From Promicromonospora citrea (GTDB taxonomy: Bacteria; Actinomycetota; Actinomycetes; Actinomycetales; Cellulomonadaceae), in contig NZ_JABEMG010000019.1 in the NCBI RefSeq assembly GCF_013004695.1, positions 1 to 50,333 on the forward strand: a stretch of DNA of 50,333 bases. Direction: 5' to 3'. Position 1 is the first letter of the stretch. Every line of letters starts with the position of its first letter. The translations under genes were made by a program, and so were the position numbers. Below, piece by piece: positions 17,212 to 34,501 of this stretch. The notes beneath the pieces are model-generated. The model did no database searches. It had not been told where the DNA came from and saw only the letters and a list, made by a program, of their open reading frames with translations.

Positions 17212-18168
17212 TCAGCTGCTTGCCTGCTGAATGCATCCAGCGATGGTTCCGGTCGAGCCACCAATCACCGCGGAGATGCAGAGGAGGCATGCGGTGCCTG
17301 CTGTCACGACGCATGCAGCGGCGCACGCAGCTGAGACCAGCGTGATCACGGCCCAGTTGATGCCCGCACTCGACAGGCAGCTGTTCAACCTGTCCCACCA
17401 GCCGACCTGAGCAACACTCCCGTCAGCCTCCATCAACTCCGGGTTCTCTGCCGTGATGGCGTCGGTGTGGGCGCCGTTCTGCCAGACGTCGAGTTGAGCG
17501 TGCGCCACATCGGAGAAGCTTGCTGACATCTCAACCACGGTGGTTGTGCCGTTGTCGTGGGAGAAGACAACCTTCGTCAGTTCGGGAATATCGGTACCGA
17601 GCAATGGCACCGTGACAAAGTAGATGCCAGCCGTCTCGGTGACCAACGCAGCATCCCAGTCGGGGCTGAGCCCGCTGCGCGGCTCGTACCCCGCGTCCTG
17701 AGCGGCTGTGACCAGCGCGTCGCCGGCACCACCGGCGACTTCATCACCCTGCTCGTCAAGCTGGACTGCCACGTCCATCGCGTGTTCTTGATCCACGCTG
17801 TCAGGCGTCACCGTTCGCTCCGAGACCTGGCTGACGCCACTCTCGGACAGGTTGAGCGCGAACGCGGTGGGAACCGGCGCCCCCTCGTGCGCCGGGCGGA
17901 CAGCGACGTAGGCGACCAGGGCAAAGATCACGGCCACGGCCGTCACACCTGCCCCGACGGCAAGCCGCCGTTGGGGTGAGTTCTGAGCGAGGCGCAGGTT
18001 CAGGAGCGCGAACACGAAGCTGACGAGCAGCAGGGCGAAACCGCCCAGGCGTAGGGCGACGACCACGCTCTCGCCCACCGGCAGGAAGGACGCTGCGCTC
18101 ATGGCCACGGACGTCGCGAGGAGCGCCACTACGGCGCGGCTCCTAGGATTGCGATCGGGGGAGTTCAA
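17212..18168 (-). CDS. Membrane protein with C-terminal Cys-rich bacteriocin-like module
   Basis: A 318-residue protein started by TTG 18168 with AGAGGAG six bases upstream. Three N-terminal hydrophobic helices (about 12-35, 40-62, 68-90) are followed by an extracytoplasmic region, residues 95-255. Residues 262-318 form a hydrophobic Ala/Gly-rich module with six Cys (264, 282, 286, 294, 297, 312): C-x17-C-x3-C-x7-C-x2-C-x14-C. This recalls secreted Cys-rich bacteriocin modules such as those of the halocin C8 type, often released from a larger precursor. The link is by pattern only. It is cargo of the Tn554-like element and ends at a strong terminator. Confidence 0.65.
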   Translation of the reverse strand: MNSPDRNPRSRAVVALLATSVAMSAASFLPVGESVVVALRLGGFALLLVSFVFALLNLRLAQNSPQRRLAVGAGVTAVAVIFALVAYVAVRPAHEGAPVPTAFALNLSESGVSQVSERTVTPDSVDQEHAMDVAVQLDEQGDEVAGGAGDALVTAAQDAGYEPRSGLSPDWDAALVTETAGIYFVTVPLLGTDIPELTKVVFSHDNGTTTVVEMSASFSDVAHAQLDVWQNGAHTDAITAENPELMEADGSVAQVGWWDRLNSCLSSAGINWAVITLVSAACAAACVVTAGTACLLCISAVIGGSTGTIAGCIQQASS

Positions 18169-18378
18169 AGGTTCTCCTCTATTTGATCCAATGGCACCCT
18201 GGTTGGGGGTGCCCGAGGCAACCGTATTCGCCCGTATGAGTGTTGTGTGACATCTGTGGGGGTTTCTGCGGGTGAATTTTTCCCAAGCCGTGGTATGCCT
18301 GTGGTCGGCAGGGAGTCGGCAGCGACTCGATGCGGCGATCCGGTTGTCGGCGACCGCGTCCGCCGCTGCGAGGGCGGC

Positions 18379-19222
18379 TCACATAGTTGTGTTCGCTGCA
18401 CCGACTTTCCGACGCAGGCGCCGTTGTGGCGACGTGTGGGGAACGCATGAGCCAAAATCAGGTCCCCCGTTGACGGCCTCGGTGGCGAACACGCGGCGGA
18501 AGTCGTGCGGGGTGAACCGCAGCGGTGTTCCGTCGACGTCGCGCAGATCGGCTCGCTCGGCCGCCTTGCGCAGCTTCTCCGCACTAGACAAGGTGCCTTA
18601 ATCGGGCATCTGTCGAGGTTGCAGCCCGGTAGGTGTTGAAGTCGACCATGTCGAAGTCTCGGGGCGACTTCCCGGTGGCGATCGCGATGTGCGTCAGCAG
18701 GTTCAATGCGTAGGTGCCGTAGGTGGCAGCGTCCGCGCGAGCCGTGCGCGCCTCGATGGCAACGAAGGCGGCGGCGTGGTTGTGCCGGCGGAACTGGGAG
18801 TAGACCCCGAGCAGACGGCTGGCGGAGAACCATGCGTAGCTGGGACGGATCACGCGCAGGACGATCAGGATCCTGATACCTCGGGTCAGCGAGTAGCGAT
18901 GCGCGGTGGGAACGTCCGGCAACCAACCATGACCACGCTGGTCGGAAGCGCTGTGCAGCCACCGGTCCTGCCAGTCCTCGCCGGCGAAGGTCTCCAGCCA
19001 GTCCAACACGCGCGTGAGCGCCAGCTCGTGCAAATGCCGCTCAGCGTGGGTCGGCTGCTCGTCCAGCAGGGTGACCATGGCCTCGGCAAGCGCCCGCCGC
19101 GTCTCATGCTCTCGGCCGGGCACCGCGGGAACGTAGGCGGGACCGGCGGGCGCGGTGAGAACGGCGGGCTCGCGGCGGCTGACCCGCGTCACGCGAGTCG
19201 TCTGCCCGTGTCGGCCGACCAT
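18379..19222 (-). pseudogene. Second tyrosine recombinase (TnpB-like), degraded
   Basis: ATG 19222 overlaps the first recombinase's stop (TGATG). An intact frame of 212 residues (to 18584) holds the N-terminal region, including HRYSLTRGIRILIVLRVIRPS and THIAIATGKSPRDFDMVDFN, then stops. A fragment at 18591-18379 contains the catalytic block LRFTPHDFRRVFATEAVNGG and then loses similarity. Full members have about 650-700 residues, so the catalytic middle and the end are deleted. Without the conserved Arg and final Tyr parts it cannot recombine DNA. Confidence 0.75.
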
Positions 19223-20463
19223 CAGTCCACCCCGAACACGTCGGACAGGTCCTGCTCGTCATACGTCCAGCCCGCCAGCGGACGCGGCCTGGGCCGCGGG
19301 CGGGGGTAGTGCTCATGAACCCTGGCGATCACCTCATCCACGCGAGGCCGCAGGTAGCGGCCCGTCGTGGTGACCTGCCGGTGCCGCAAGACCTGCTGGA
19401 CATCGACGAGAGTGACCTGCGGGTCGGCGATCAGCCGGAGCCCCAAGGTATGCCGCAGGTCGTGCAGCGTGATGTTGGCGCCGATCGAGTCGTTGATGCG
19501 TCGCAGCACCGCGCGCACAGCGGTGTAGGTCAGCGGCCGCAACGGATTGCGCCGGGTCCACCACAACGGCTCGTCCGGTTCGGGCCGGTGCCCCTCACCT
19601 GCGAGCTCGCCGAGGTAGAGAGCAAGCCACGTGAAGGCCTCCGGCGCCGCCGGGCAGGCCTGCTTCATCCCGCCCAGTCCCTTGGTCGCCACGTAGATGC
19701 GCCCCTCGCCTGGGCACGCATCCCCGACACTCATGCCCAGCAGTTCCGAGGCCCGGGCACCAGAGGACAGAAACATGCTGAACATGGCCCGGTCCCTGTT
19801 GCACTCCAGCCGGGAGAACGTGTCGTCCAGGACGTCGTCGGGCACCGCGCGAGGCGGCAGGTCAGGCTGCTTCTGACGGTAGCTGCCCCGCTTGTGCAGC
19901 CTGAACGGTTCCGTCGGGTTGTGATGGGCGTGGACTCGCCCGCCGCGACGAGACTGCGGCGGAACGGGCGAGACGATCGGCCCCTTGCCGGTCCGGACGT
20001 GGAAGGCGTAGAACGCCGCGACCACCGACAGTGCATGATTGATCGTCGCCGGCGCGTACCCAGCCGACAGCGACGGCTTCCCGGTCCTGGCGTTGATCGA
20101 CCCCGGCGAAGGCGCATCCGGCCGGGTTCGCACTCGGGCGGGGTTGTCACTCGTGCGCAGCCACAGCACGAAGTCGCGCACTTCGTCGCGTTGCGCACGG
20201 TCCCAGGGCACCTCGACCGCGGCCAGGAACCGGAACCAGCGCAGCAGGTCGTAGCCGTACGAACGACACGAAGATGCCCCGTTCCCGCACGCCAGAAGCT
20301 CGCGCAAGAACTCACTGACCGGCTCGATCGCTACGCCCGCACCGTCGATCACGACCCATGGCAGATCCGCCGCGCCCGTCGACCGGACCGCGCCGCTGCG
20401 CACCACTACGAGTTCTGCGACCGAACGGCCGCCACCCTCACCATCGACGTCACTCTGCATCAT
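19222..20463 (-). CDS. Tyrosine recombinase/integrase, Tn554 TnpA-like
   Basis: A 413-residue tyrosine recombinase. The core-binding domain includes SSCRSYGYDLLRWFRFLAAV and YAPATINHALSVVAAFYAFH. Catalytic residues are visible: Arg in LSSGARASELLGM, Lys in ATKGLGGMKQ, His-x-x-Arg in ITLHDLRHTLGLRL, His/Arg in QVLRHRQVTTTGRYLRP with Tyr. The ATG at 20463 has GAGGGGG eight bases upstream; a GTG at 20523 is possible. It heads a two-recombinase operon at the right end of the element. The enzyme looks intact although its partner is not. Confidence 0.88.
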   Translation of the reverse strand: MMQSDVDGEGGGRSVAELVVVRSGAVRSTGAADLPWVVIDGAGVAIEPVSEFLRELLACGNGASSCRSYGYDLLRWFRFLAAVEVPWDRAQRDEVRDFVLWLRTSDNPARVRTRPDAPSPGSINARTGKPSLSAGYAPATINHALSVVAAFYAFHVRTGKGPIVSPVPPQSRRGGRVHAHHNPTEPFRLHKRGSYRQKQPDLPPRAVPDDVLDDTFSRLECNRDRAMFSMFLSSGARASELLGMSVGDACPGEGRIYVATKGLGGMKQACPAAPEAFTWLALYLGELAGEGHRPEPDEPLWWTRRNPLRPLTYTAVRAVLRRINDSIGANITLHDLRHTLGLRLIADPQVTLVDVQQVLRHRQVTTTGRYLRPRVDEVIARVHEHYPRPRPRPRPLAGWTYDEQDLSDVFGVD

Positions 20464-20571
20464 CGATGCCGCCCCCTCACGATCGATCAAGAGGGCATCA
20501 GCGTCAGGGCCGACATCGCACACCGAGGGGACGACACGCCAGTAGTGCGGTCAACAAGACACGCGGGGAAC

Positions 20572-21546
20572 CTGCACCAGGCCCGGATCCAGGAAGGCCA
20601 GCGTGTGCTGGAGATCGGGTCCGGAGGCCCGAACGCGGCGATGCTCGCTCACCTCGTCGGACCTACAGGAACAGTGGTGAGCGTCGACATCGACAAGGGA
20701 GTCGCTACCCGCACACGCACCGGACTCGAACTGCTCGGCCTCACCAAAAGTGTCGAAGTTGTCACCGCCGACGCGTCCGAACCGCTCGGCCGCGGTGTGT
20801 TCGACCGGATCATGGTCACCGTCTCCCCCTGGTCTCTGCCCGAGACGTGGGTCGAACAGCTCGCACCCGACGGAATCCTGGTCGTCCCCCTCCAGATCGC
20901 CCCAGGGCTCCGGCGCATCATCGGCTTCCGCAAGAAGGATGGACGGCTCGTCACGGAGTCGACCGTGCCGGGCGGGTTCGTGCCGCTGCAGGGCTCGGGG
21001 TTGTTCAACCCGGCCTCTGCCCTGCTGACAGGCCCGTCAGGCAAGCCGGTCGCGTTCAAGTTTCCCGGCAGTGAGGTCCCCGAGCGCTTTGGGGTGTCGG
21101 ACGACGTACTGGCGACCGACCCGATCGACGCGTGGTCCGGCGTGATCTACAAGAACCGCACCATCTGGCTCGACCTGCTCACCTACCTCCTCATCCAACC
21201 GGGCGCATGCGCGATGGAGGCCGAGGAGCCGGCCGACCGCGGCTCGGACATGTCGTTCTACCCGGCCCTGGTCGACGGGACTTCGTTCGCAGCCCTGCAC
21301 CGTCGTCCGGCCTCAGAGAGCACAGTCGAGGTCGGCGCGATCGGTAAGGGACCCGACGCAACCCGCCTCACCAAGCGGCTCGCGGATACGATCGCCCACT
21401 ATGGAGCCCGCCACCGTGGCGCCGAACCGCTCTTCCAATGGTGGCCCACCGGCACCGATCCCGGCGACGTCCCACCGTCCGTTGCGGTTCTGCCACGACC
21501 GCACGGCACGCTCACCATCGGGTGGCTCGGGACGGGAATCGGCTGA
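20572..21546 (+). pseudogene. 3' part of the interrupted PCMT-like methyltransferase
   Basis: Continues the gene broken at 16730. It begins in frame with LHQARIQEGQRVLEIGSGG (SAM motif I), then VVSVDIDKGV, VVTADASEPL and FDRIMVTVSPWSLPETWVEQ, the PCMT-like Rossmann core, followed by an about 150-residue C-terminal domain ending at TGA 21544-21546. No other defects are seen, so the insertion is likely recent. No start codon or ribosome binding site serves this half, although read-through from outside could express part of it. The intact enzyme would methylate Asp/isoAsp residues, perhaps in a ribosomal peptide. Confidence 0.8.
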
Positions 21547-21551
21547 TGTGG

Positions 21552-22385
21552 TCACTCTGGAGTGGAGCAATCGATGCGACTCCGCCCTTCTGACTCCGTG
21601 ACAGGTTTCGCGTCGCAGTTCGGCACGGCCCTTTCGACGTCCATGCGGGAGCCGCCATCCCCAGCCGACTTCGTGCCAGCGATCTGATCGACCCGACAGT
21701 GCGGCCGTTCGACACGGCGAACCCGTTCCCACAGGTCGATCACGTGCCCCGCGACCCCCGTTACCGGTACGGACATGGCAAGTCCCCAGTTCGCTGCGCG
21801 CATCCGCTCGCGGTACGGCTCGATGCTGTCGCCGTAGCAGTTGGCGACAAGGTGCCCTCCGCCCGATGCGGTGCAGCGGTGCAGTTCGGTGAGCATCGGG
21901 GCAGGAATCTTGAAGTGCATGACGAACAGCGCGTGCACGAGGTCGAACGTGCCGGAGGCAAACGGCAGCGGGCCATGCGGCGCGACCGTGACGGCGTTCC
22001 GGGGGCGCGCCGCGGCCAGCGACGCCCAGCTCATGTCACATCCGGCGACGCGCGGTGTGAGTTCGGTCCGCAGTGTCTCGGCAGACTCACCAGTGCCGGT
22101 GCCAAAGTCCAGGACATTCCCCGGGGCCAGACCGCATTCACGGACGACCTTGATCATCGCTGCCTGGACTCTGGCGTGGATGCGGCGGTCCAGTACACGT
22201 GCCCGTTCGCTGAGCCGGAGCTCGCACACTTCCTGCACGAGGTGCGGATCCATATCGGCCGGAGGAACGGGCACATAGAGATAGTCCATGAACCGGTACA
22301 AGGTCCGTCCGCCGTGCTCAATGGCTCGGGGCCCGAGCATATCGCCGTCCAGAAGAAGCAGCGAGCCGTGCGCGATGAATCTCAT
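21552..22385 (-). CDS. SAM-dependent methyltransferase, last gene of a five-gene operon
   Basis: A 277-residue protein. SAM motif I is PGNVLDFGTGTGES; further class I marks are RVAGCDMSWASLAAA, LPFASGTFDLVHALFVMHF (motif IV region) and MLTELHRCTASGGGHLVAN. The substrate is unknown. The last about 60 residues are Arg/Asp-rich and unlike a folded domain, perhaps a shifted tail. ATG 22385 is used; GTG 22397 is an alternative. It follows the 2H phosphoesterase gene by 48 bp, the only gap in the operon, and converges on the broken methyltransferase gene, five bases apart. Confidence 0.75.
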   Translation of the reverse strand: MRFIAHGSLLLLDGDMLGPRAIEHGGRTLYRFMDYLYVPVPPADMDPHLVQEVCELRLSERARVLDRRIHARVQAAMIKVVRECGLAPGNVLDFGTGTGESAETLRTELTPRVAGCDMSWASLAAARPRNAVTVAPHGPLPFASGTFDLVHALFVMHFKIPAPMLTELHRCTASGGGHLVANCYGDSIEPYRERMRAANWGLAMSVPVTGVAGHVIDLWERVRRVERPHCRVDQIAGTKSAGDGGSRMDVERAVPNCDAKPVTESEGRSRIDCSTPE

Positions 22386-22433
22386 GGTGTCGCCCACGGC
22401 CCAGGAACCATCTCGCCCTTGGCCGACAGGAGG

Positions 22434-22991
22434 TCAGGCGTCATTGAGCCTGAACCGCTGGATGAGATCACCCTTGATGCCCTTCGCCCCGGCATGCGCG
22501 ACGTCGATGGATCGGACGGCGCAGTCCCGGACTCTGGCGGTGGACCGAGCCAGAAGCCGGTCGACGTCGTCGAAATGGTCCTCGACGACGGCCAGGGTGA
22601 GATGCGGTTCTCCGGTGGTCCGGCTGAGGCTGCTCATGAGCGTGACGATCGCCGCGCTCACACTGGCACGCCAGGACAGCACGGCCACGGGCGCGCTCAC
22701 GTCGGCAAGTACGTACTGGCCCGTGACCGTCTCGCGCACAGGTGCGCCGAACCGCAGGACGAACGGCTTGAGGCGCGGCACAGCCTCGGCAAGGATCGCG
22801 ATGACCGCGTCGAGGTCGCCGATGTCGATGGTCCCGAGCGCGATGGTGACGTGGGGCCGGCTGTTACCCGTCTCGCCGTAACGCACGAGCGACCCATGCC
22901 GTTGATCGATCGTGGCGTTGATGAGGGCGCAGTCATCGGCAGCTGGTCCCTCGACGGCGAAGCTCACGCCGATCTTCAGCGGTTCAGTCAC
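22434..22991 (-). CDS. 2H phosphoesterase (2'-5' RNA ligase-like)
   Basis: A 185-residue protein with the two His-x-Thr motifs of the 2H superfamily, in RPHVTIALGTIDIGDLDAV and GEPHLTLAVVEDHFDDVD, on symmetrical halves. Such enzymes open or form 2',3'-cyclic phosphate and 2'-5' bonds in RNA ends or small nucleotides. The GTG start at 22991 overlaps the nucleotidyltransferase stop by four bases. Next to a kinase and a nucleotidyltransferase it suggests an RNA-end or nucleotide-signal pathway; that is inference. Confidence 0.75.
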   Translation of the reverse strand: MTEPLKIGVSFAVEGPAADDCALINATIDQRHGSLVRYGETGNSRPHVTIALGTIDIGDLDAVIAILAEAVPRLKPFVLRFGAPVRETVTGQYVLADVSAPVAVLSWRASVSAAIVTLMSSLSRTTGEPHLTLAVVEDHFDDVDRLLARSTARVRDCAVRSIDVAHAGAKGIKGDLIQRFRLNDA

Positions 22992-23467
22992 GATCGGGCC
23001 TTCCCGTGATCGAGGATCGAGGCGATGAGGTCCGACGTCGAACGGACAGGTGGTCGTTCCACGGTGCACAGCTCCGTCCCCAGTGACTCGAGGTCGGCGC
23101 GCTCCGCAGCACTGAGGAAGGTGAAGCGGCTCGCGCAGAGGTAGCTCGGCCGCACGGCATGGACCGCCTCGGCCACGGCTCCGACGTCGTAGGCAACGAC
23201 GTAGTCCACGCACGCGAAGGCACTGAGGATCTCCACGCGCTCCTCGAAGGACAGCACCGGACGGCCAGCACCTTTCGCTTGCCGCACCGACTCGTCCGTG
23301 GCGAGGCCGACCACAAGGCTGTCGCCAAGACTGCGTGCGGCTTGCAGGGAGCGGACGTGGCGGGCGTGCGTCAGGTCGTAGACACCTTTGGTCAGGGCGA
23401 CTGTGCCGAGCGTCTTGCGGAAGTCCTCGTCACCGAACAGGGATGCAGGAGCCAGCTTCGTCCTCAT
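22988..23467 (-). CDS. Cytidylyltransferase-family nucleotidyltransferase (RfaE2-like)
   Basis: A 159-residue protein with the HIGH-family fold: KGVYDLTHARHVRSLQAARS, VGLATDESVRQAKGAGRP, VLSFEERVEILSAFACVDYV. These match the nucleotidyltransferase domain of RfaE/HldE. The nucleotide-binding motif reads HARH where most members have H-x-G-H; the Gly to Arg change could alter activity. Family members transfer AMP or CMP onto phosphorylated sugars or alcohols. It overlaps both neighbours by four bases, so it is made together with the kinase and 2H enzyme. No sugar-synthesis genes are near. Confidence 0.75.
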   Translation of the reverse strand: MRTKLAPASLFGDEDFRKTLGTVALTKGVYDLTHARHVRSLQAARSLGDSLVVGLATDESVRQAKGAGRPVLSFEERVEILSAFACVDYVVAYDVGAVAEAVHAVRPSYLCASRFTFLSAAERADLESLGTELCTVERPPVRSTSDLIASILDHGKARS

Positions 23468-24129
23468 TCTGCGGCCTCCAGGGTGGAGGCGACCTCGGGA
23501 GCCAACAGGCTCGCGATCGTGGCCAACACGGACCGGGCCGTGTCCTGGACCCGCCCGTCCAGGAGCGCCGTGTCGAGCTCGATGATCAGCAGGCCGTCTG
23601 TTGTCGGCTCCTTCACGAACGTTCGAGCGGCGTCGCGGAGCGCCTCCAGCTTGGTGGTGTTCATGATGCGACCCTCCGCAGTGGTGAGTCGGTTGGCCGC
23701 CTCGCGTTGCAGGCTTATCTCCGGTGTCGTGACGAAGACGAAGCACGCATGGACGCGACTCCGCACGCCCGGCTCACTCGCGATGGCCTCGACAGCCGCA
23801 AGGTGGGAATCGGTGACGAGGCCGAGGGCGTTGAGCGCGCGGGAGAAGATGATCCGGTCGTTCAGGCCACGGTCCAGGAGATGGAAGCGCGGCGGCCGCT
23901 CGTCGGCACCGACGGCGGCGAGGTACTGCAACGCGCTGCCGGCCAGATACAGATTGAGGCTCGCCAGGTCGTTCTTGTCGATCGGCGCATAGCGTCCGCC
24001 GCCATGGAAGTCACCCACCGCCCAGCCCGCACGCCGGATCCGGTGCGACACCACGTCCAGCACCGTCGTCTTGCCGCTCTTGGGCATGCCTGCGAACTCG
24101 ATCACGACATCGCGGGGCAACACGCTCAC
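23464..24129 (-). CDS. P-loop kinase, deoxynucleoside/thymidylate kinase-like
   Basis: A 221-residue ATPase with Walker A GMPKSGKTT after strand DVVIEFA. FHLLDRGLNDRIIFSRAL carries the DRG motif common to nucleoside and thymidylate kinases, and a lid-like Arg-rich helix may be EISLQREAANRL. It probably phosphorylates a nucleoside, nucleotide or RNA end; the substrate is not evident. GTG 24129 overlaps the TPR gene stop by four bases, ATG of the next gene overlaps its own stop. A housekeeping tmk is unlikely given the context and divergence. Confidence 0.7.
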   Translation of the reverse strand: MSVLPRDVVIEFAGMPKSGKTTVLDVVSHRIRRAGWAVGDFHGGGRYAPIDKNDLASLNLYLAGSALQYLAAVGADERPPRFHLLDRGLNDRIIFSRALNALGLVTDSHLAAVEAIASEPGVRSRVHACFVFVTTPEISLQREAANRLTTAEGRIMNTTKLEALRDAARTFVKEPTTDGLLIIELDTALLDGRVQDTARSVLATIASLLAPEVASTLEAAE

Positions 24130-25214
24130 GCAGGACTCTCCTCCGGATCAGGCGGGCGGAACGCTCGCAGGCAGAGGTCCTCAGACGGGTTCTCCCCGCC
24201 CGCGACCAGGTAGAACTCCATGTGGCCGAGCACGGCCTGTCGATTCCGCGCCTCGCTGTACTGTGGCATCTGTTTGGCGATCCGCAGCGCCTTCGCCCGT
24301 GATGACACCGTGCCCCGCGAGTACTCGTGAGCCCACTCGATGACGTCGGCCCATGCCCTCTTCATCTGCCCGGTCCGACGCTTGAGCTGGACGCACTTCA
24401 CGGCCTCCACGAGCAGCGTCTTCGACTCCGCGGTCTCACCCACCCTCAGCGCCATCAGCGCGGCGAAGAACAACGATGTCGGCTCCATCGGCGCCAGCGA
24501 CATCGCCGTCCGGTGCGCTTGGAGCGACTCGTCCCACCTGCCCTGGTCACGCAGCAGCAAACCGAGGTAGTCCCAGCTTTCGTACGACGACTCGTCCGCA
24601 CGGATCGCCTTCTTGATGTGGTCCATCGCGCGATCCGGCGCCTCGTATCGGTAGGCCGTCGCGAGCGCACGCCACGTGCCGGCCGAGTCGGCGTCAACCG
24701 GATCCGCTGCCTCGAGGATCGCCTCGGCGAGCCTGTTCAACCCCTTGTTGATGTAGGAGCGAGCCAGCCGCACCCTGATCCGCCCGTTGCCTGGCTGGAT
24801 CTCCAGAGCCTGCTGGTAGTAGGTGACAGCCCGGTCGTAGTCCGCCTCGATGTACGCCGACTGCCCCTCGTTGTAGAGGTGGGCCGCCAGGACGATCCGC
24901 TCCGACTCCTGCTCGAACGCGCGCAACCGATCATCCAGCTCCCACCGTCTCCGAGCCGCCTCCACGAGCTCGGCCCGCAGGGCATCACGGTCGCGCCGCG
25001 CCTCATTGAGCGTCCGTAGCCCAACCACCGCCCCGACCGCCAGGACGAACGTGATCACGGTGATGGCCGCGAGGGCGACGGCGATCGTCAGGTTCGCGAA
25101 GTCGATGTATCCCGATGGATCAAAGCCCGGCTCCGAGGCGCCCGGCGTAGCGTCGACAACTCCAGGGATCTGCTTTACGCGCGGCCGCGCCGGTACTCGT
25201 CGCTCGGACGACAC
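24126..25214 (-). CDS. Membrane-anchored TPR protein, first gene of the operon
   Basis: A 362-residue protein. A single hydrophobic helix lies at about residues 42-67 (LTIAVALAAITVITFVLAVG), followed by a coiled-coil stretch (LNEARRDRDALRAELVEAAR). TPR repeats fill residues about 105-290, e.g. AHLYNEGQSAYIEADYDRAV then YYQQALEIQPGN, and YESWDYLGLLLRDQGRWDES. The TPR part is likely cytoplasmic and may act as sensor or scaffold for the soluble enzymes encoded downstream. It starts at GTG 25214 and is divergent from jetA across 396 bp. Confidence 0.75.
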   Translation of the reverse strand: MSSERRVPARPRVKQIPGVVDATPGASEPGFDPSGYIDFANLTIAVALAAITVITFVLAVGAVVGLRTLNEARRDRDALRAELVEAARRRWELDDRLRAFEQESERIVLAAHLYNEGQSAYIEADYDRAVTYYQQALEIQPGNGRIRVRLARSYINKGLNRLAEAILEAADPVDADSAGTWRALATAYRYEAPDRAMDHIKKAIRADESSYESWDYLGLLLRDQGRWDESLQAHRTAMSLAPMEPTSLFFAALMALRVGETAESKTLLVEAVKCVQLKRRTGQMKRAWADVIEWAHEYSRGTVSSRAKALRIAKQMPQYSEARNRQAVLGHMEFYLVAGGENPSEDLCLRAFRPPDPEESPA

Positions 25215-25610: not shown

Positions 25611-27050
25611 ATGGATCTTGACCTCGTCGATCAGCTCCGGGAGCGCCACCCCGCGTGGCGCCTGCTGCGCGCCCGCAACGCCCCTCTCATCCTGTCTTTC
25701 CTCGGCGCGCACTTCATCGACGCCAACCGCGGCCCGACCCCAGCCGGTCATCTGACGGCCGCCCTGGACGACGTCCTACTGGACCTGCATCGCACGGATC
25801 CCGACCGCTACCCTTCGGAGCCCCAGGCATACCTCGACGACTGGTCCGGCACCGAGTCTGGCTGGCTGCGGCGCTACTACCCGGCGGACTCGGACGAGAT
25901 CCACTACGACGCGACGCCCGCGCTCGAACGGGCCTACCGGTGGGTCGAGGGCTTGCAGGCGCGGTCCTTCGTGGGCACCGAGTCCCGCCTGCACACCCTG
26001 GTGGAGCTGTTGCGGCAGATCGTCCACGGCACGCAGGAGGACCCGGCCGTCCGGCTCGCCGAGCTGCAGCGGCGCCGGACGGAGATCGACGAGGAGATCG
26101 CACAGGTCGAGGCGGGGAACGTCGCGGTCATGGACGAGACTGCGGTCCGCGACCGGTACCAGCAGTTCTCCTCGACTGCTCGCGAGCTGCTGTCCGACTT
26201 CCGCGAGGTGGAGGAGAACTTCCGGGCCCTGGACCGGTCGGCGCGCGAGAAGATCGCGAGCTGGGACGGCGGCAAGGGCGGGCTGCTCGCCGAGCTGGTC
26301 GGCAGCCGCACCGACATCGCCGCCTCCGACCAGGGGCGCAGCTTCCAGGCGTTCTACGACTTCCTGCTCAGCGAGGACCGCCAGGACGAGCTGGCCGGCC
26401 TTCTCGCCCAGGTGCAGGCGATCCCGAGGATCGGCGCGGACCAGCGGCTGCGCACCGTGCACCACGACTGGTCCGACGCCGCCGAGCGCACTCAGCAGAC
26501 CGTCCGCAACCTGTCCGAGCAGCTGCGCAGGTTCCTCGAGGACCGCGTCTGGCTGGAGAACCGGCGCGTCCTCGACCTCGTCCGCTCCATCGAGGCGACC
26601 GCCATAGCGGTCCGCAACGCGCCTCCGCCGGACTCATCAGGGGTCGGCCTCGAGGTCGACCAGCCCGGGGTCGCCGTCGCGCTCCCGTTCGAACGCCCCC
26701 TGTACGACACGGTCCCGGCGTCGGCAGTGGACAGCCTGATCGCACCCGAGGAGCCCGACCCCGTCGAGATCGACGCCCTGCTGGAGCAGCGGTTCGTGGA
26801 CACCGCGCGCCTGGTCGACAACATCCTTGCCGTGGTGCCGCCGCGTAGCACCGCCGTCCTCAGCGACGTCGTGCTGATGTACCCGGTCGAGCAGGGCGTC
26901 GCCGAGATCGTGGGCTACCTGTCGCTCGGCGACCAGGAGCAGGTCGCGGTCGACGTGGACGACACCGAGCAGATGGTCGTCGAGTACACCGACCCGGACG
27001 GCGTCCCGCGCCGGGTCACGATGCCGAAGGTGACGGTGACCCGCCGATGA
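25611..27050 (+). CDS. jetA: Wadjet protein JetA (DUF3375)
   Basis: A 479-residue protein matching DUF3375: it opens with LVDQLRERHPAWRLLRARNA and PLILSFLGAHFID, then ALERAYRWVEGLQARSFVGTESRLHTL, and a long helical middle (LAELQRRRTEIDEEIAQVEAGN). In Wadjet it is the MukF-like kleisin-associated subunit that with JetB and JetC forms a loop-extruding complex which recognises small circular DNA. ATG 25611 is chosen because homology begins there. It is first of a four-gene operon, stop overlapping the jetB start by four bases. Confidence 0.9.
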   Translation: MDLDLVDQLRERHPAWRLLRARNAPLILSFLGAHFIDANRGPTPAGHLTAALDDVLLDLHRTDPDRYPSEPQAYLDDWSGTESGWLRRYYPADSDEIHYDATPALERAYRWVEGLQARSFVGTESRLHTLVELLRQIVHGTQEDPAVRLAELQRRRTEIDEEIAQVEAGNVAVMDETAVRDRYQQFSSTARELLSDFREVEENFRALDRSAREKIASWDGGKGGLLAELVGSRTDIAASDQGRSFQAFYDFLLSEDRQDELAGLLAQVQAIPRIGADQRLRTVHHDWSDAAERTQQTVRNLSEQLRRFLEDRVWLENRRVLDLVRSIEATAIAVRNAPPPDSSGVGLEVDQPGVAVALPFERPLYDTVPASAVDSLIAPEEPDPVEIDALLEQRFVDTARLVDNILAVVPPRSTAVLSDVVLMYPVEQGVAEIVGYLSLGDQEQVAVDVDDTEQMVVEYTDPDGVPRRVTMPKVTVTRR

Positions 27051-27640
27051 GGACCCCGGAGGAGCAGGCGATCGGCACGGCCGTGATCGGCCTGATGCGT
27101 GGCGTCGTGTACCGCGAGTCGGACGAGACCAGGTGGGTGGCGCTGGGCCGTCATGCGGGGCCGGTGCGCGACCACTTCGCTGCCATCGGCGTCGATGTGG
27201 TGATCGACGACGTCGAGGGTTACGCCTACCTGCGCGCCCGAGAGGCGGAGGATGGCGAGGAGCCGCTCCCCCGCCTGGTCAACCGGCGTGCCCTGACCTA
27301 CAACGTGAGCCTGCTGCTCGTGCTGCTGCGCAAGCGCCTCGCCGAGTTCGAGGCGACGGGCGGCGAGGGTCGCCTCGTCCTGAGCCGCGACCAGATCGTC
27401 GAGATGCTGCGTGTCTTCCTCGCGGAGTCGACCAACGAAGCACGTGTCCTGGACCAGGCGGTGCGGACGATCGGCCAGGTCAGGGACCTGGGCTTCCTCC
27501 GCGAGCTGCGAGGCCAGACAGACCTGTGGGAGGTGCGCCGCGTCCTGAAGGCATATGTCGACGCATCGACCATGGGCGACTTCGACGCGAAGCTCACCGA
27601 GTACGCGAACGCTCAGACGGGAAGCGGGTCCGATGACTGA
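27047..27640 (+). CDS. jetB: Wadjet protein JetB (DUF4194)
   Basis: A 197-residue DUF4194 protein, the MukE-like subunit. Typical blocks are [45 protein letters not shown], and the winged-helix part [21 protein letters not shown] followed by LGFLREL. It links JetA to the JetC ATPase. It starts within an ATGA overlap with jetA and its end overlaps jetC by eight bases, showing strict co-translation. Confidence 0.9.
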
Positions 27641-30600
27641 CGCACTGTTCTCGGCGGTGGAGGTCGAGTCGACGGACAAGCTCACCGGCTACCGCCTGCA
27701 ACGCATCGAGGTCTACAACTGGGGAACGTTCCACAAGCACGTGTGGTCGCTCTCGCCGGCAGGGCAGACGTCCCTGCTGACCGGCGACATCGGCAGCGGC
27801 AAGTCCACCCTGGTCGACGCCGTGACGACCCTGCTGCTGCCGGCCAACCGCATCGCGTACAACAAGGCGGCGGGGGCCGACAGCAAGGAGCGCACGCTGC
27901 GGTCGTACGTGCTGGGCCACTACAAGTCGGAGCGCAACGAGACCACTGGTGCATCGCGACCCGTCGGCCTGCGCGATCACACGTCGTACTCGGTGATCCT
28001 GGGTGTCTTCGGCAACGCCGGGTTCGACGAGACCGTGACGATCGCTCAGGTCTTCCACCAGCGGGACCGCACCGGTCAGCCCGACCGGTTCTTCGTCACC
28101 GCGCAGGCAGACCTCTCGGTCGACCCCGACTTCAGCGGTTTCGGCGCCGACCTGAAGGCCCTCAGATCCCGGCTGCGCGCGGCGGGTGCGCACGTCGACA
28201 CGACGTTCCCCGAGTACTCCCGGCGGGTACGACGGCTGCTCGGGATCCGTTCGGAGCAGGCGATGGAGCTGTTCCACCAGACGGTCTCGATGAAGTCGGT
28301 GGGCAACCTCAACGAGTTCGTCCGCGGCCACATGCTGGAGCCTGCCGACGCCGCCAGCCGTGTGAGCGGCATGGTCGACCACTTCGAGAACCTCACGAAG
28401 GCGCACGAGGCCGTCCGCCGAGCGACCGAGCAGCTCGCTGCTCTCGACCCGTTGATCGACTCCTGCGACCGCTACGAGGAAGCCGTCGAACGGCACAGGT
28501 CCCACGTCCGCCAGCGGGACGCCGTCGCCCCCTACCTCGCCGAACGGGCCGCAGCAATCCTCACGGCCACACTTGACCGTGATCGCACCACTCTGACCGC
28601 CCGCGAGGGCGAGCAGCGGGACCTGGAACGTGAGCGGCGGTCGCTCGCCCCGCAGCGGGACCGCCTCGTGGGCGAGCGGCAGAACGCGGGCGGTGACCGC
28701 CTCGGCGAGCTGGAGGAGGCGATCCCGAAGGCCAAGCAGATGCTCCAGGACCGCACCGTCCGTCGTCAGGCCTACGCGCTCCTGCTCGACCAGGCGAGCC
28801 TCGACGACGTCACGACGGCGGCGGACTTCGCGGGCCGCATGGCCGACGTCGCAGCCCGCCGCGAAGGGCTCAAGGACGAGCGTGGCCGGATCGACGGTGA
28901 CAGGCGGCCCCTGCTGGAGCGCCACTCCGAGATCAACCGCAGGGGCGCTGCGTTGCTCAAGGAGATCTCCGGGCTGGAGCGCCGGCGCAACAACCTTCCC
29001 GGCCGCCTGGTCGAGCTGCGCGAACGGCTGTGCACCGAGCTGGGCCTCGACGAGGCGGACCTGCCGTTCGCGGGCGAGCTCGTCGACGTGCGCGACCAGC
29101 ACGCGCAGTGGCGCGGTGCCGCGGAGCGGGTCCTGCGTGGTTTCGCGCAGAACCTCCTGGTGCCCCAGCGCCTGTATGAAGACGTGACCGGCTGGGTCAA
29201 CGCCAACCACCTCGGCACCCGGCTGGTCTACCTGCGCGTCGCGGAGCGCCGGGTCCCCTCCCGGCCGGCGGACCGCGGGCCGGGGCTCCGCCTGTACGAC
29301 GTCCTGGAGGTCGAGGACGGCGGCTTCGCCGGCTACCTGGCGGCCGAGCTGGCGCACCGGGCCGACCACCGGTGCGTCGACGACGTCGGCCAGCTGCGCC
29401 GGGAGGATCGTGCCGTCACACGTGAGGGTCTGGTCAGGGACCGCGACCGGCACGAGAAGGACGATCGCAGCCGCGCGGACGACCCCCGCACCTGGGTGCT
29501 CGGTCGCGGCAGCGAGCAGAAGATCAAGGCGCTCAACGCCGAGGCCCGCACGCTCCAGGGAGAGCTGACCGGCATCAACGGCCAGCTCACTGCGCTGGAC
29601 ACGCGGCGGAACGCCCTTGACGACAGCGCCGCCGCGCTCGCTGGCCTGGCCCAGTACACGACCTGGCGCGAGGTCGACGTGGACGAGGCCCGCGACGCCC
29701 TGACGGCTCTCACCGGCGAGCGCGACCGTCTGGTGGCCGGATCGTCGCGGCTGACGGAGATCGACCGACAGCTCAGCGAGCTCGCCGAGCGGGAAGACAA
29801 GCTGACCCAGCGAATCGGCAGCGTCGGCGAGACGATCGGCGGCCTCAAGAGCGACGTCACGGCCGCGCAGCGCCGCCTCGACCGGGAACGCTCCACCCTC
29901 GACGCGCTCGACGAGGCCGCTCTCGCGGATGCCCGCGCCTGCTACCCGTTGCTCGAGGAGCGGCTGGGTCGCAAGGTGCCGGCCACGATCGACGAGTGCG
30001 ACGCGACCGCCGCGACGCTCCCGCGCGCCATCAACGCGGCCGTCGACGACGCACAGCGCCAGATGAACGGCTACGTGACCAGCATCCAGCAGCAGATGTC
30101 CGAGGTCCGCCGACGCTGGCCCGAGGCGACCACAGAGATGGACGCCAACGTCGCGGCGATCGGCGAGTACCGGAGCCTGCGGGACCGGGTGCGCCGGGAC
30201 GACCTGCCGCGGTTCGAGGCCGAGTTCAAGCACCAGCTCAACACCAACGCCGTCCGCGAGCTGACCCAGTTCTTCTCCTGGCTGCGCCGGCAGGCCGAGC
30301 AGATCGGTGACCGGGTGGAGCGGATCAACGAGGCACTCTCGGCGATCGACTACAGCCCCGGCCGGATCGTGCGCCTGGTCGCGGAACCCACGCCGAACCA
30401 GGAGATCAAGCAGTTCCGGTTCGACCTGCGTGCCGCGACCACGAACGTGCTCAGCCCGGACGACGCGTACACGGAGCAGCGGTTCGAGGAAGTGCGCCGC
30501 ATCATCGAACGGTTCCGCGGCCGAGAGAACCACGCCGACAGCGACAAGGCGTGGACCCGACGGGTGACGGACGTGCGCAACTGGTTCACGTTCGCCGCCT

Positions 30601-31013
30601 CCGAGCAGGACCGGGAGACGGGTGTCGAGCACGAGCACTACACCGACTCCGACGGAAAGTCCGGCGGGCAGAAGGAGAAGCTCGCCTACACGATCCTGGC
30701 CGCGTCGCTCGCCTACCAGTTCGGCCTGGAGTGGGGCGCCGAGGCCTCGCGCGACTTTCGCTTTGCCGTCATCGACGAGGCGTTCGGCCGTGGCTCGGAT
30801 GCCTCGACCCGGTACGCGCTCGGGCTGTTCGCCAAGCTCGGCCTCCAGCTGCTGATCGTGACCCCGCTGCAGAAGGTGCACGTGATCGAGCCGTACGTGC
30901 ACTCCATCGGATTCGTCGACAACCCGACCGGTGCCTCCTCCCGCGTGCACACCCTCACCATCGAGGAGTACCACGAGCGGCGGCGCGAGCACGCCGGGCA
31001 GGGAGGCGCGTGA
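27633..31013 (+). CDS. jetC: Wadjet SMC-like ATPase JetC
   Basis: A 1,126-residue MukB/SMC-like ATPase. Walker [10 protein letters not shown] is at residues 51-59 after [20 protein letters not shown]. Long coiled-coil arms (about 270-500 and 640-950) enclose a hinge region. The C-terminal head has the signature [20 protein letters not shown] (about 1010) and Walker [15 protein letters not shown] (about 1045). It is the motor that extrudes DNA loops before cleavage by JetD. Length and motif order are complete, with no frame disruption. ATG 27633 lies inside the jetB end. Confidence 0.93.
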
Positions 31014-32233
31014 GCGGCCGGGCGGTGCGTCCGGCCAAGCGCTGGACGGCGCCGTCGGACATCGCGGCGAAGGTGCGGCGCCGGTGGGACGACGGCGCGC
31101 TGTTGCGCGCCTTCGCGGCGGGCGACCCGTTCCCGGTGCTCGATGTCCCGGTCCACGGCCCGTCCGCCGCAGACCTCGGTGAGCGCTTCGACGAGGCGCG
31201 CGACTGGCTGGCGGCCTTGGACGCCGGCTCACGTGGCGGCCGGGCGTACGACCTGGTCAGCACGAGCGTCGGCGGCCGGGATCTCGGCCGCACCGAAGTT
31301 CCGGGACGCGCGGTGGTCACGTCGTTCGACCAGGCCTGGCGCCTGCTCGGCGTCCTCGACGACGTCGCCGCATTCGGCCGCGTGCTCACGACCGCCGACG
31401 CCCTCCTGCCCGACGCCGCCGTCCGCACCTGGGTGCTGGACAAGCCTCTGCGGGCCCTGGCACTGGAACCAGAGTGGCCGGCGATCACCGCCGCCTACCG
31501 GTGGCTACGGGACAACCGCGGCTCCGGCAGGTACCTGCGCCAGGTCGACGCACCTGGCGTGGACACCAAGCTGGTCGAGCGACACCGGGCTGTCCTCGCG
31601 GAGCTGCTCGGCGTCAGCTCGCGGGCCGCCGGCTTCATCGCCGACCTCGGCCTGTCCGGCAAGCCCACGGTGGTCCGGCTGCGCTGCGCACCCGGCCTAC
31701 TCGGCCTGCCCGACGTCGTGACGGACGTGACGCTGCGCCTGGACGAGGCCCGGCAACTCGCTCCCCGTGTCGTTACGCAGGCACTGATCGTGGAGAACGA
31801 GATCACCTACCTGAGCGTGCCGGTCCCTCGCGGCGGGCTGGTCCTGTGGGGCAAGGGGTTCGACGTCGACCAGCCAGCCTCGCTCCCCTGGCTCCGGAAC
31901 ACCGACGTGACCTACTGGGGCGACCTCGACACCCACGGGTTCGCGATCCTCGACCGCTTGCGCGCGTGGCTCCCGCAGGCGCGCTCGGTGCTGATGGACC
32001 GGGACACCCTCCTGGCCCACGAGGGCCGCTGGGGACGGGAAGAACGTCCGACGTCGGCCGCGCTCACCCGCCTGACCGACGCCGAAGCGGCGGTCTATGC
32101 CGACCTCGTCAGCGACCGGTACGGGGCACGGGTTCGGCTGGAGCAGGAGCGGATCGACTGGGCGTGGGCGTCCCACCGGCTGCCGGCCGGACACACCGGC
32201 GGGGTACCCGGGGAACTCCGTCTGCGCAGGTGA
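31010..32233 (+). CDS. jetD: Wadjet nuclease JetD (DUF3322/DUF2220)
   Basis: A 407-residue protein, started by GTG 31010 in a GTGA overlap with jetC. The N-terminal part ([20 protein letters not shown]) matches DUF3322. The C-terminal DUF2220/TOPRIM domain shows the acidic residues expected for metal-dependent cleavage: [14 protein letters not shown], then [20 protein letters not shown] and [15 protein letters not shown]. This is the topoisomerase VI-like nuclease that cuts the trapped plasmid. It completes the jetABCD set in the order of type I systems. Confidence 0.92.
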
Positions 32234-33190: not shown

Positions 33191-34501
33191 GTGAGCGATC
33201 ACCCCGCCCCCTCGCCAACCCCCGGGACCACGGCGGGAGCTTCCCCGACCGTGCTCCGGATCCGGATCGACCTCGTCGACGCACACCCACCCATCTGGCG
33301 CCGACTCGATCTGCGATCCGACCTCACGCTCGACGTCGTGCACCAGGTCATCCAGGACGCCTTCGGGTGGGAGGACGCCCACCTGCACCGGTTCGCGGTC
33401 GGCGGCAGCGTGTGGGACCGCTACGCCCAGCTCTTCCTGTGCCCGTTCGACGTCGCCGAGGGCGAGGACGAAGGCACCCCGGAGGAACAGGTCCGCCTCG
33501 ACCAGGTGCTGAGCGAGCCCGGCGACGTGCTGCGGTACGTGTATGACTACGGCGACGACTGGCAGCTCACGCTCCGCCTGGAGCAGACCCTGCCCACCGA
33601 GCCGGGCACACCCCCGGCGGTGTGCGTGGACGGAGAGCGCGCCGCGCCGCCGGAGGACTCCCGGTTCGAGTACATGAATGACGGCCTGGCCGCACTCGTC
33701 GACGACCCGGACCGGTTCAACCCCGCCGAGGTGAACGAGCGGCTCGGCCGGCCCTGGTACATGCTGCGCGCTCGCGGCCTGCACCCACGCCTGCTGGAAC
33801 TGGTGAACATGCTCTCGCTCACCGACGACGGCGCCGAGCTCGGCACCCGGCTCGCCGCCCTCCCGGACGAACCCACCCGCCCGTCCGACGACGACCTCCG
33901 TACCGCGCTCGGTGCTCACCTGTGGTTCCTCGACCAGGCCGGCGGCGGCGGCATCCCGCTCACCGCGGCGGGCTACCTGCGCCCAGCGTTGGTGGAAGAA
34001 GCAGCCACCTGGATCCCCACGATGGCGGACTGGATCGGCAAGGCGAACCGCGAGGACCTCACCTACCCGGTAGCGGCCTTCCGCGAGGCGCTGGTCAAGA
34101 AGCTCAAGCTCCTGCGCAAGTTCAAGGGAGCGCTGCACCTGACCCGCGCCGGCGCCGCCGCGCGCGACCGTCCCGCCGTGCTGTTCGACCGGATCGCGGT
34201 GTCGATCGCCCCGCCACACGAGCGCGGACGGTTCACCGTCGACGCCGACCTGCTCGTCCTCGCCTACGCGGCGGTCACACCCGGCGGCGAACTGCCCCTG
34301 GACCGGATTGCGGCCCACCTGACCGACCTCGGCTACGAGCACGACGACGGACAGCCGGTCGCCAGACGCGACCTTCGCCTGTACGAGTCCACCGTCCACC
34401 ACGCGCTCGTCAACATCGCCGAACCGCCATCCGGGCGTCGAGCGCGGAGTCAGATCAGTGCAGTCGCGGCCGCACTGGCCAACGCGGCTCTGCAGCATTG
34501 A
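33191..34501 (+). CDS. pRiA4b ORF-3-like protein
   Basis: A 436-residue protein started by GTG 33191. Residues about 20-190 match the plasmid pRiA4b ORF-3-like domain: RIRIDLVDAHPPIWRRLDLR, LDVVHQVIQDAFGWEDAHLH, then YVYDYGDDWQLTLRLE. The remaining 240 residues (GAHLWFLDQAGGGGIPLTAAGYLRP and following) are a helical extension common in actinobacterial members. The family is linked to mobile DNA but has no proven function. Co-directional with the gene before it and with Wadjet. Confidence 0.85.
   Translation: MSDHPAPSPTPGTTAGASPTVLRIRIDLVDAHPPIWRRLDLRSDLTLDVVHQVIQDAFGWEDAHLHRFAVGGSVWDRYAQLFLCPFDVAEGEDEGTPEEQVRLDQVLSEPGDVLRYVYDYGDDWQLTLRLEQTLPTEPGTPPAVCVDGERAAPPEDSRFEYMNDGLAALVDDPDRFNPAEVNERLGRPWYMLRARGLHPRLLELVNMLSLTDDGAELGTRLAALPDEPTRPSDDDLRTALGAHLWFLDQAGGGGIPLTAAGYLRPALVEEAATWIPTMADWIGKANREDLTYPVAAFREALVKKLKLLRKFKGALHLTRAGAAARDRPAVLFDRIAVSIAPPHERGRFTVDADLLVLAYAAVTPGGELPLDRIAAHLTDLGYEHDDGQPVARRDLRLYESTVHHALVNIAEPPSGRRARSQISAVAAALANAALQH

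What the first reader, a model, noticed from the sequence alone, without database searches (positions are those of the whole stretch)
21552..25214. Unnamed five-gene operon: TPR membrane protein, P-loop kinase, nucleotidyltransferase, 2H phosphoesterase, methyltransferase
Four genes overlap by exactly four bases (24126-24129, 23464-23467, 22988-22991) and the fifth follows by 48 bp, so the set is one unit. Three enzymes act on nucleotides or RNA ends: a nucleoside-kinase-like P-loop protein, a cytidylyltransferase-like protein and a 2H enzyme with two H-x-T motifs. A membrane TPR protein could be the sensor. It is divergent from a complete Wadjet operon and beside a mobile element. I do not recognise it as a named defence or RNA-repair system. 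Two readings fit: a nucleotide-signal immune system, or capping/repair of RNA ends. Both are inference.
Basis: partly seen in the sequence, partly recalled or inferred. Interest (0 to 1): 0.82.

Follow-up and report, generated by a model that had tools for sequence, protein, structure and literature searches.

The report
Travelling five-enzyme nucleotide-processing operon
A rare set of five neighbouring bacterial genes, inherited together and apparently exchanged between actinobacteria, seems to build and break down an unidentified nucleotide compound, possibly as part of a stress or anti-virus response, and it matches no named system in the databases searched.

Summary
Five genes on the minus strand (25214-21552) form one unit: membrane TPR protein, P-loop kinase, HIGH-type nucleotidyltransferase, 2H phosphoesterase and class I methyltransferase. 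The same order was found in four other genomes (one Promicromonospora, three Streptomyces); two Streptomyces copies add a RelA/SpoT-type HD gene. In a sample of 392 Streptomyces-genus genomes, the two with a close kinase are the two with the 2H gene. pN/pS is below 1 in all 16 gene pairs compared, and GC3 is lower than in neighbouring genes. In one genome the 3.8-kb set sits between two genes that are close neighbours in 11 of 15 relatives, so it behaves as a horizontally exchanged accessory islet. Structure models place the kinase with nucleoside/nucleotide kinases and the 2H protein with cyclic phosphodiesterases (weak model). Best reading: a kinase-then-nucleotidyltransferase pathway, formally like NadR, makes a nucleotidylated compound that the hydrolases remove, organised at the membrane by the TPR protein. 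RNA-end repair is less likely: no ligase, no polynucleotide-kinase resemblance. Defence is plausible (Wadjet beside it here, a PglW gene near another copy) but unproven. Substrate, product and phenotype are unknown.

The parts
24126..25214 (-). Gene 1: membrane protein with one hydrophobic segment and TPR repeats (362 aa)
   Evidence: TPR_2 E 1.1e-11; one hydrophobic segment, residues 44-64; 75% identity to the MEB111 copy, 39% to two Streptomyces copies
25023..25085 (-). Predicted transmembrane segment of gene 1 (residues 44-64)
   Evidence: Kyte-Doolittle mean 2.77 over 21 residues; a comparable segment (2.49-2.78) in all 5 copies
23464..24129 (-). Gene 2: P-loop kinase with deoxynucleoside/thymidylate kinase fold (221 aa)
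   Evidence: AlphaFold2 pLDDT 84.7; best PDB matches AbmG, Drosophila dNK, thymidylate kinase, E about 2e-8 to 3e-8
24067..24090 (-). Walker A motif GMPKSGKT of the kinase
   Evidence: Residues 14-21, identical in all 5 copies
22988..23467 (-). Gene 3: HIGH-superfamily nucleotidyltransferase, nearest HldE/RfaE domain II and ethanolamine-phosphate cytidylyltransferase (159 aa)
   Evidence: TIGR02199 101.7 bits, below its 181.5 cut-off; profile hits 3elb 3.6e-24 and 5x9q 2.6e-21
23357..23368 (-). H-x-x-H motif of the nucleotidyltransferase (HARH here; HAAH or HYGH in relatives)
22434..22991 (-). Gene 4: 2H phosphoesterase (185 aa)
   Evidence: Pfam 2_5_RNA_ligase2 4.1e-06; model closest to Arabidopsis Appr>p cyclic phosphodiesterase and E. 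coli LigT
22845..22853 (-). First H-x-T motif (HVT) of the 2H protein
   Evidence: conserved in 5 of 5 copies
22596..22604 (-). Second H-x-T motif (HLT) of the 2H protein
   Evidence: conserved in 5 of 5 copies
21552..22385 (-). Gene 5: class I SAM methyltransferase (277 aa); about the last 50 residues are not shared with the three aligned relatives
   Evidence: Methyltransf_25 5e-11; alignment

Best explanation
It is a horizontally exchanged accessory operon that makes, modifies and destroys a small nucleotidylated compound. Inferred steps: the dNK/TMPK-fold kinase phosphorylates a nucleoside or nucleoside-like alcohol. The HIGH-superfamily transferase joins a nucleotide to that phosphate, giving a pyrophosphate-linked product; NadR uses the same kinase-then-transferase logic to make NAD. 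The methyltransferase tailors the product or a target. The 2H phosphodiesterase, with the RelA/SpoT-type HD protein in two Streptomyces copies, removes the product or a cyclic by-product and so acts as an off-switch. The membrane TPR protein gathers the enzymes at the membrane or senses the trigger. Most likely use: a stress or anti-phage response. Shown: gene set, conservation of order, selection, insertion at one site, folds (predicted) and motifs. Inferred: substrate, product, order of steps, biological role.
For: Five-gene order kept in 5 genomes. At E <= 0.001, close kinase and 2H gene occur in the same 2 of 392 Streptomyces-genus genomes. pN/pS 0.13-0.68 in 16 gene pairs; operon GC3 0.74-0.89 against 0.92-0.98 in seven neighbouring genes from four of the five loci. 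In G615 the operon lies between TetR and acyl-CoA dehydrogenase genes; in 11 of 15 relatives the dehydrogenase lies within the 1.5-kb flank of TetR. Kinase model: the 50 PDB matches listed (of 342 with E <= 0.001) are nucleoside or nucleotide kinases. Transferase in the RfaE/ethanolamine-phosphate cytidylyltransferase group with HxxH and RSTS motifs in 5 of 5. 2H model nearest the Appr>p phosphodiesterase and LigT. HD protein of L007 nearest SpoT/RelA (6.5e-15) and MESH1 (2.7e-8). A distant kinase relative in G1107 overlaps a weakly Nudix-like gene by 4 bases. NadR logic: passages of PMC9503650. Wadjet beside the window copy and a PglW gene 3.8 kb from the L008 copy.
Against: No substrate or product is known. 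The transferase's nearest families make CDP-alcohols and ADP-sugars, so the product need not be a dinucleotide. The 2H model is good in only one of five AlphaFold models (76.9, the rest 36-41), and the L007 2H protein is below Pfam's cut-offs. Fold similarity does not fix substrate. A known defence gene was confirmed near 2 of 5 copies only; the other three loci were not scanned. No kinase relative in the phage, plasmid or IMG/VR collections. No recognisable killing effector (nuclease, NADase, pore) among the five proteins. The glycine of the usual HxGH motif is lost in the window and MEB111 copies. Two distant kinase relatives (L026, L027) show no partner gene that I recognised.
Confidence: 0.42

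Rival explanations
1. RNA-end healing or capping: the kinase phosphorylates 5'-OH RNA, the 2H protein opens 2',3'-cyclic phosphates, the transferase adds a 5' nucleotide cap and the methyltransferase protects the 3' end, repairing RNA cut by toxins.
For: 2H enzymes resolve cyclic phosphates in RNA repair (passages of PMC9503650). Weak matches of the methyltransferase to bacterial Hen1 (E 0.02) and to a phage family named tRNA methyltransferase (1.2e-05 and, in L007, 1.3e-06).
Against: No ligase among the five genes. No polynucleotide kinase among the 50 PDB matches listed for the kinase. Transferases of this subgroup act on small phospho-alcohols or sugar phosphates (recalled). Other methyltransferase families score better than Hen1.
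Confidence: 0.17
2. CDP-alcohol pathway at the membrane: the kinase phosphorylates a small alcohol, the transferase makes a CDP-alcohol as in the Kennedy pathway, the methyltransferase methylates it, and the product modifies lipid or surface glycan.
For: Best profile match in PDB of the transferase is ethanolamine-phosphate cytidylyltransferase (3.6e-24) and of the methyltransferase a phosphatidylethanolamine N-methyltransferase (9e-08). The TPR protein has a membrane segment.
Against: No choline or ethanolamine kinase among the 50 PDB matches listed for the kinase. No CDP-alcohol phosphotransferase among the five genes. 2H and RelA/SpoT-type HD enzymes have no place in that pathway (recalled). 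Methyltransferase similarity is at generic level (34.8 bits).
Confidence: 0.15
3. A small nucleoside natural-product (antibiotic) cluster, with the kinase analogous to AbmG of albomycin synthesis.
For: Top structural match of the kinase is AbmG in complex with cytidine and ADP (its link to albomycin is recalled, papers seen only as a listing). Streptomyces hosts. A methyltransferase and a nucleotidyltransferase could be tailoring enzymes.
Against: No exporter or scaffold-forming enzyme recognised among the five genes. A membrane TPR protein and a 2H hydrolase would be unusual in such a cluster (recalled). AbmG is one of many nucleoside and nucleotide kinases with similar scores.
Confidence: 0.14

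Closest known systems
NadR (P-loop nicotinamide riboside kinase plus HIGH-superfamily NMN adenylyltransferase)
   Same: A P-loop nucleoside kinase works with a HIGH-type nucleotidyltransferase in two steps (passages of PMC9503650)
   Different: Separate proteins; the transferase is of RfaE type and no NadR or NMNAT model is among its matches at E up to 1; 2H, methyltransferase and TPR partners added
HldE/HldC (D-glycero-beta-D-manno-heptose 1-phosphate adenylyltransferase)
   Same: Nearest curated family of the transferase (TIGR02199, 3e-29)
   Different: 101.7 bits against a cut-off of 181.5; no heptose kinase among the five genes
AbmG, deoxynucleoside kinase and thymidylate kinase
   Same: Fold of the kinase model; Walker A and DRG motif
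   Different: No clear sequence similarity: best E 0.24 with the single protein; with a profile best E 0.022 to an SRP receptor, thymidylate kinase at 0.53. Own conserved motifs FHGGGRYAP and N[KR]LT-GR-M
Plant Appr>p cyclic phosphodiesterase / E. coli LigT
   Same: 2H fold and two H-x-T motifs
   Different: 11-16% identity in the structural matches; no PDB sequence found with a profile at E up to 5
MESH1 / RelA-SpoT hydrolase domain
   Same: HD protein of L007: 6.5e-15 to SpoT/RelA, 2.7e-8 to MESH1. The L008 protein was not scanned; it is close to that of L007 (pN 0.056)
   Different: Accessory: no such gene between the 2H and methyltransferase genes of the window, MEB111 and G615 operons; elsewhere in those genomes not tested
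Clover defence (CloA dGTPase, CloB nucleotidyltransferase)
   Same: Idea of a nucleotide made by one enzyme controlling a nucleotide-acting partner (abstract and passages of PMC12265719)
   Different: No dGTPase among the five genes; the transferase is HIGH type; five genes with a membrane TPR protein. No direct alignment made

Membership tests
HldE/HldC heptose-phosphate adenylyltransferase | Score above the curated TIGR02199 cut-off | tested here: not met
   101.7 of 181.5 bits
HldE/HldC heptose-phosphate adenylyltransferase | Activity on heptose 1-phosphate | not testable with these tools
   needs enzymology
NadR / NMN adenylyltransferase | Match to an NMNAT or NadR model | tested here: not met
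   not among the NCBIfam or Pfam matches of P0003 at E up to 1
dNK/TMPK nucleoside and nucleotide kinases | Fold with Walker A and DRG motif | tested here: met
   predicted model and motifs
dNK/TMPK nucleoside and nucleotide kinases | Phosphorylates a nucleoside or nucleotide | not testable with these tools
   needs enzymology
2H phosphoesterases | Two H-x-T/S motifs in the 2H fold | tested here: met
   motifs in 5 of 5 copies; fold by Foldseek on a moderate model
CBASS | CD-NTase plus Cap effector | tested here: not met
   no PADLOC match of the transferase or 2H protein at E up to 1; weak hits of the other three are to PrimPol 0.088, Cas11a 0.031 and mad2 3.5e-4
RNA repair systems (Pnkp/Rnl, RtcB type) | RNA ligase together with a polynucleotide kinase | tested here: not met
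   no ligase among the five genes; kinase model nearest nucleoside kinases
Clover defence | CloA-type dGTPase with CloB-type NTase | tested here: not met
   no such gene among the family matches of the five; the HD protein of L007 is RelA/SpoT type. No direct alignment with CloA or CloB
Anti-phage defence systems in general | Protection against phage | not testable with these tools
   context only: Wadjet beside the window copy, PglW near L008

The most novel reading that the evidence does not exclude
A new kind of nucleotide-signal system: a HIGH-superfamily transferase, rather than a CD-NTase, Cas10 or TIR enzyme, makes a pyrophosphate-linked nucleotide signal from a nucleoside phosphorylated by its own kinase; 2H and RelA/SpoT-type HD enzymes are the erasers, and a membrane TPR protein is sensor or receptor for phage or envelope stress.
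Probability: 0.15. Interest if true: 0.9.

Novelty: new variant of a known kind. Interest (0 to 1): 0.6.

Why it matters
If the reading is right, a cofactor-style chemistry (nucleoside kinase plus HIGH transferase) has been packaged into a mobile membrane-linked unit with dedicated erasers, which would add a route to nucleotide signals beyond the polymerase-like enzymes now known. Whatever its role, it is a discrete, conserved, testable set of genes without a named function in the libraries searched, and the kinase's distant relatives beside an IrrE-like peptidase gene and a weakly Nudix-like gene hint at a broader unstudied kinase family.

Tried and rejected
Searches for relatives on mobile elements. 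Kinase: none in plasmids, phages or IMG/VR (distant kinase P0024 none in plasmids). TPR protein: none in plasmids (phages and IMG/VR not searched). 2H: none in IMG/VR (phages and plasmids not searched). Transferase: 5 IMG/VR loci at 39% identity over about 70 residues and 35 plasmid records, all below 60% identity; of the two regions opened, the NBC_01601 plasmid relative lies in a different gene set (Gfo/Idh oxidoreductase, NUDIX) and the Nonomuraea region carried no annotation.

Rows dropped before a count. Marginal kinase matches were not counted as relatives: 2 of the 4 (E 5e-4 and 8e-4; 47 and 107 residues inside frames of 1,526 and 1,151 aa) and 11 of the 13 (E 1e-4 to 1e-3; 33 to 49 model positions at the P-loop). 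In the TetR test 26 of 26 genomes matched and the best 20 were given loci; L031 is G615 itself, L032-L046 (84-89% identity) were used, and L047-L050 (42-67%) were set aside as too distant.

A recombinase trio beside the operon was considered; Pfam recognises only the 19222-20523 gene as an integrase, so that idea is left open. Five paper searches for the gene set listed 10 of 138, 10 of 10, 12 of 15, 2 of 2 and 8 of 44 papers; by title and abstract start none describes it. PMC10853773 was opened because it names P-loop kinases; its passages concern DndF. The overlap-motif pattern was uninformative (0 matches, 1.5 expected).
Full report
Anatomy. On the minus strand, 25214-21552, five genes follow one another: a TPR protein (362 aa), a P-loop kinase (221 aa), a nucleotidyltransferase (159 aa), a 2H phosphoesterase (185 aa) and a methyltransferase (277 aa). 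Genes 1-4 overlap by four bases each; gene 5 follows by 48 bp from ATG 22385. Pfam supports four of the five assignments; the kinase has no Pfam match above cut-off, and the 2H match is marginal (27.3 bits, cut-off 27; the L007 protein is below its cut-offs). PADLOC gives no convincing match: TPR to PrimPol 0.088, kinase to Cas11a 0.031, methyltransferase to mad2 3.5e-4, none for the other two. The TPR protein has one hydrophobic segment near its N-terminus and no second one, so it is probably single-pass (inference).

Conservation. In L007 and L008 a sixth gene lies between the 2H and methyltransferase genes; that of L007 is an HD protein most similar to SpoT/RelA and MESH1 (HD_4 3.8e-9), and that of L008 is close to it (pN 0.056). 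The window, MEB111 and G615 operons have no such gene at that place.

Distribution. Strong kinase matches: 2 of 199 relatives, one of them the window's own genome; 1 of 394 genomes of the class, the window's own; 4 of 392 of the Streptomyces genus, 2 close and 2 at about 28% identity without recognised partners; 2 of 396 of the phylum with a wider profile, the own genome and a distant one, G1107, at about 30% identity. These samples overlap, only the 6 or 7 best first-look candidates per genome were scored in the kinase profile searches, and NBC_00154 was not in the sample, so these are lower bounds. A peptide-pattern scan of the genome collection (84,980 species by the tool's description) gave 4 relatives, one of them distant. 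With the 2H profile, the same 392 gave exactly the two genomes that have the close kinase. The set is rare, patchy and, as far as sampled, co-inherited.

Selection and mobility. Pairwise pN/pS (Nei-Gojobori counts) is 0.13-0.68 in 16 gene pairs; the 2H gene is the highest in two of three comparisons, the methyltransferase in the third. Synonymous differences between the window and MEB111 are near saturation, so those ratios are rough. GC3 of operon genes is 0.74-0.89 in all five hosts, against 0.92-0.98 for seven neighbouring genes chosen from four of the five loci. In G615 the operon fills 3.8 kb between a TetR gene and an acyl-CoA dehydrogenase gene. Among 15 relatives with TetR at 84-89% identity, the dehydrogenase lies within the 1.5-kb flank in 11: stop-to-stop gaps of about 31-190 bp in 9, about 442 and 951 bp in 2. 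In the other 4 the dehydrogenase lies about 1.6-4.5 kb away with other genes between, one of them a 1,476-aa protein with a NACHT domain. The operon is therefore an accessory insert, in G615 at a site of gene turnover.

Neighbourhood. The window copy is divergent from a complete type I Wadjet operon, JetA-D at 25611-32233. The L008 copy has a PglW gene 3.8 kb away; whether the rest of a BREX system is there was not examined. The neighbours of L005, L007 and L025 were read by eye only, look mostly metabolic, and were not scanned for defence genes. Two of five with a confirmed defence gene is suggestive, not a statistic; no control operons were scored.

Enzymes. The kinase model is good (pLDDT 84.7). 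Its 50 listed PDB matches are nucleoside or nucleotide kinases, led by AbmG, Drosophila dNK and thymidylate kinase; by sequence alone no such link is significant. GMPKSGKT, LLDRG and N[KR]LT-GR-M are kept in 5 of 5. The transferase belongs to the RfaE domain II / ethanolamine-phosphate cytidylyltransferase group with HxxH and RSTS motifs in 5 of 5, though the glycine of the usual HxGH is replaced in the window (HARH) and MEB111 (HAAH) copies. The 2H model (pLDDT 76.9, reached by one of five AlphaFold models) is nearest the Arabidopsis Appr>p cyclic phosphodiesterase and E. coli LigT. The methyltransferase gives only generic class I matches. Distant kinase relatives sit next to an IrrE-like peptidase gene (L009, 1-base overlap) and a weakly Nudix-like gene (L068, 4-base overlap, E 0.0013, below Pfam's cut-off).

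Interpretation. A nucleoside-type kinase feeding a HIGH-type transferase is the logic of NadR (passages of PMC9503650): phosphorylate, then nucleotidylate. Adding hydrolases of the 2H and RelA/SpoT HD kinds suggests that the compound is made and removed, as expected of a signal or a controlled nucleotide. The membrane TPR protein suggests a scaffold or sensor. I hold this as the best reading at 0.42. RNA-end repair, a CDP-alcohol pathway and a nucleoside natural product are kept as rivals. Horizontal exchange is well supported; a defence role is plausible but rests on context in two of five loci.

Novelty. No curated family cut-off or PADLOC system covers the set, and five full-text searches, whose lists were partly capped, showed no paper that describes it by title or abstract start. 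Most papers of subscription journals are not held, so an earlier description cannot be excluded; from memory, comparative-genomics surveys of nucleotide-centred conflict and RNA-repair systems exist that I did not read. I therefore rate it a new variant of a known kind (mobile nucleotide-handling operons) and state the bolder case separately.

Noticed in passing
window 20524-21546 (+): Remnant of a PCMT-type methyltransferase (PF01135, 7.4e-21, model positions 62-207 of 210) whose start appears cut off at the integrase gene beside it.
   Followed up: partly
window 17212-20523 (-): Integrase-family gene (19222-20523) followed by tandem reading frames 18584-19222, 18165-18962 and 17212-18168 without Pfam matches at 1e-4; possibly one mobile element.
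   Followed up: partly
window 33251-34501 (+): PRiA4_ORF3-family protein (PF07929, 4.2e-40) just beyond the Wadjet operon.
   Followed up: no
L051 9979-14409: A 1,476-aa NACHT-domain protein occupies, in another genome of the Streptomyces sample, the same TetR/acyl-CoA dehydrogenase gap that holds the operon in G615.
   Followed up: partly
L009 8195-10221: Distant kinase relative overlapping an IrrE-like peptidase gene by one base in a Deltaproteobacteria MAG; possibly another two-gene system.
   Followed up: partly
L068 8758-10094: Distant kinase relative overlapping a weakly Nudix-like gene by four bases in a 2.4-Mb genome of the phylum.
   Followed up: partly
L008 7170-7900 (-): By eye a PIN-like toxin frame with a small upstream partner between the operon and the PglW gene; the first has no Pfam match at 1e-4.
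   Followed up: partly
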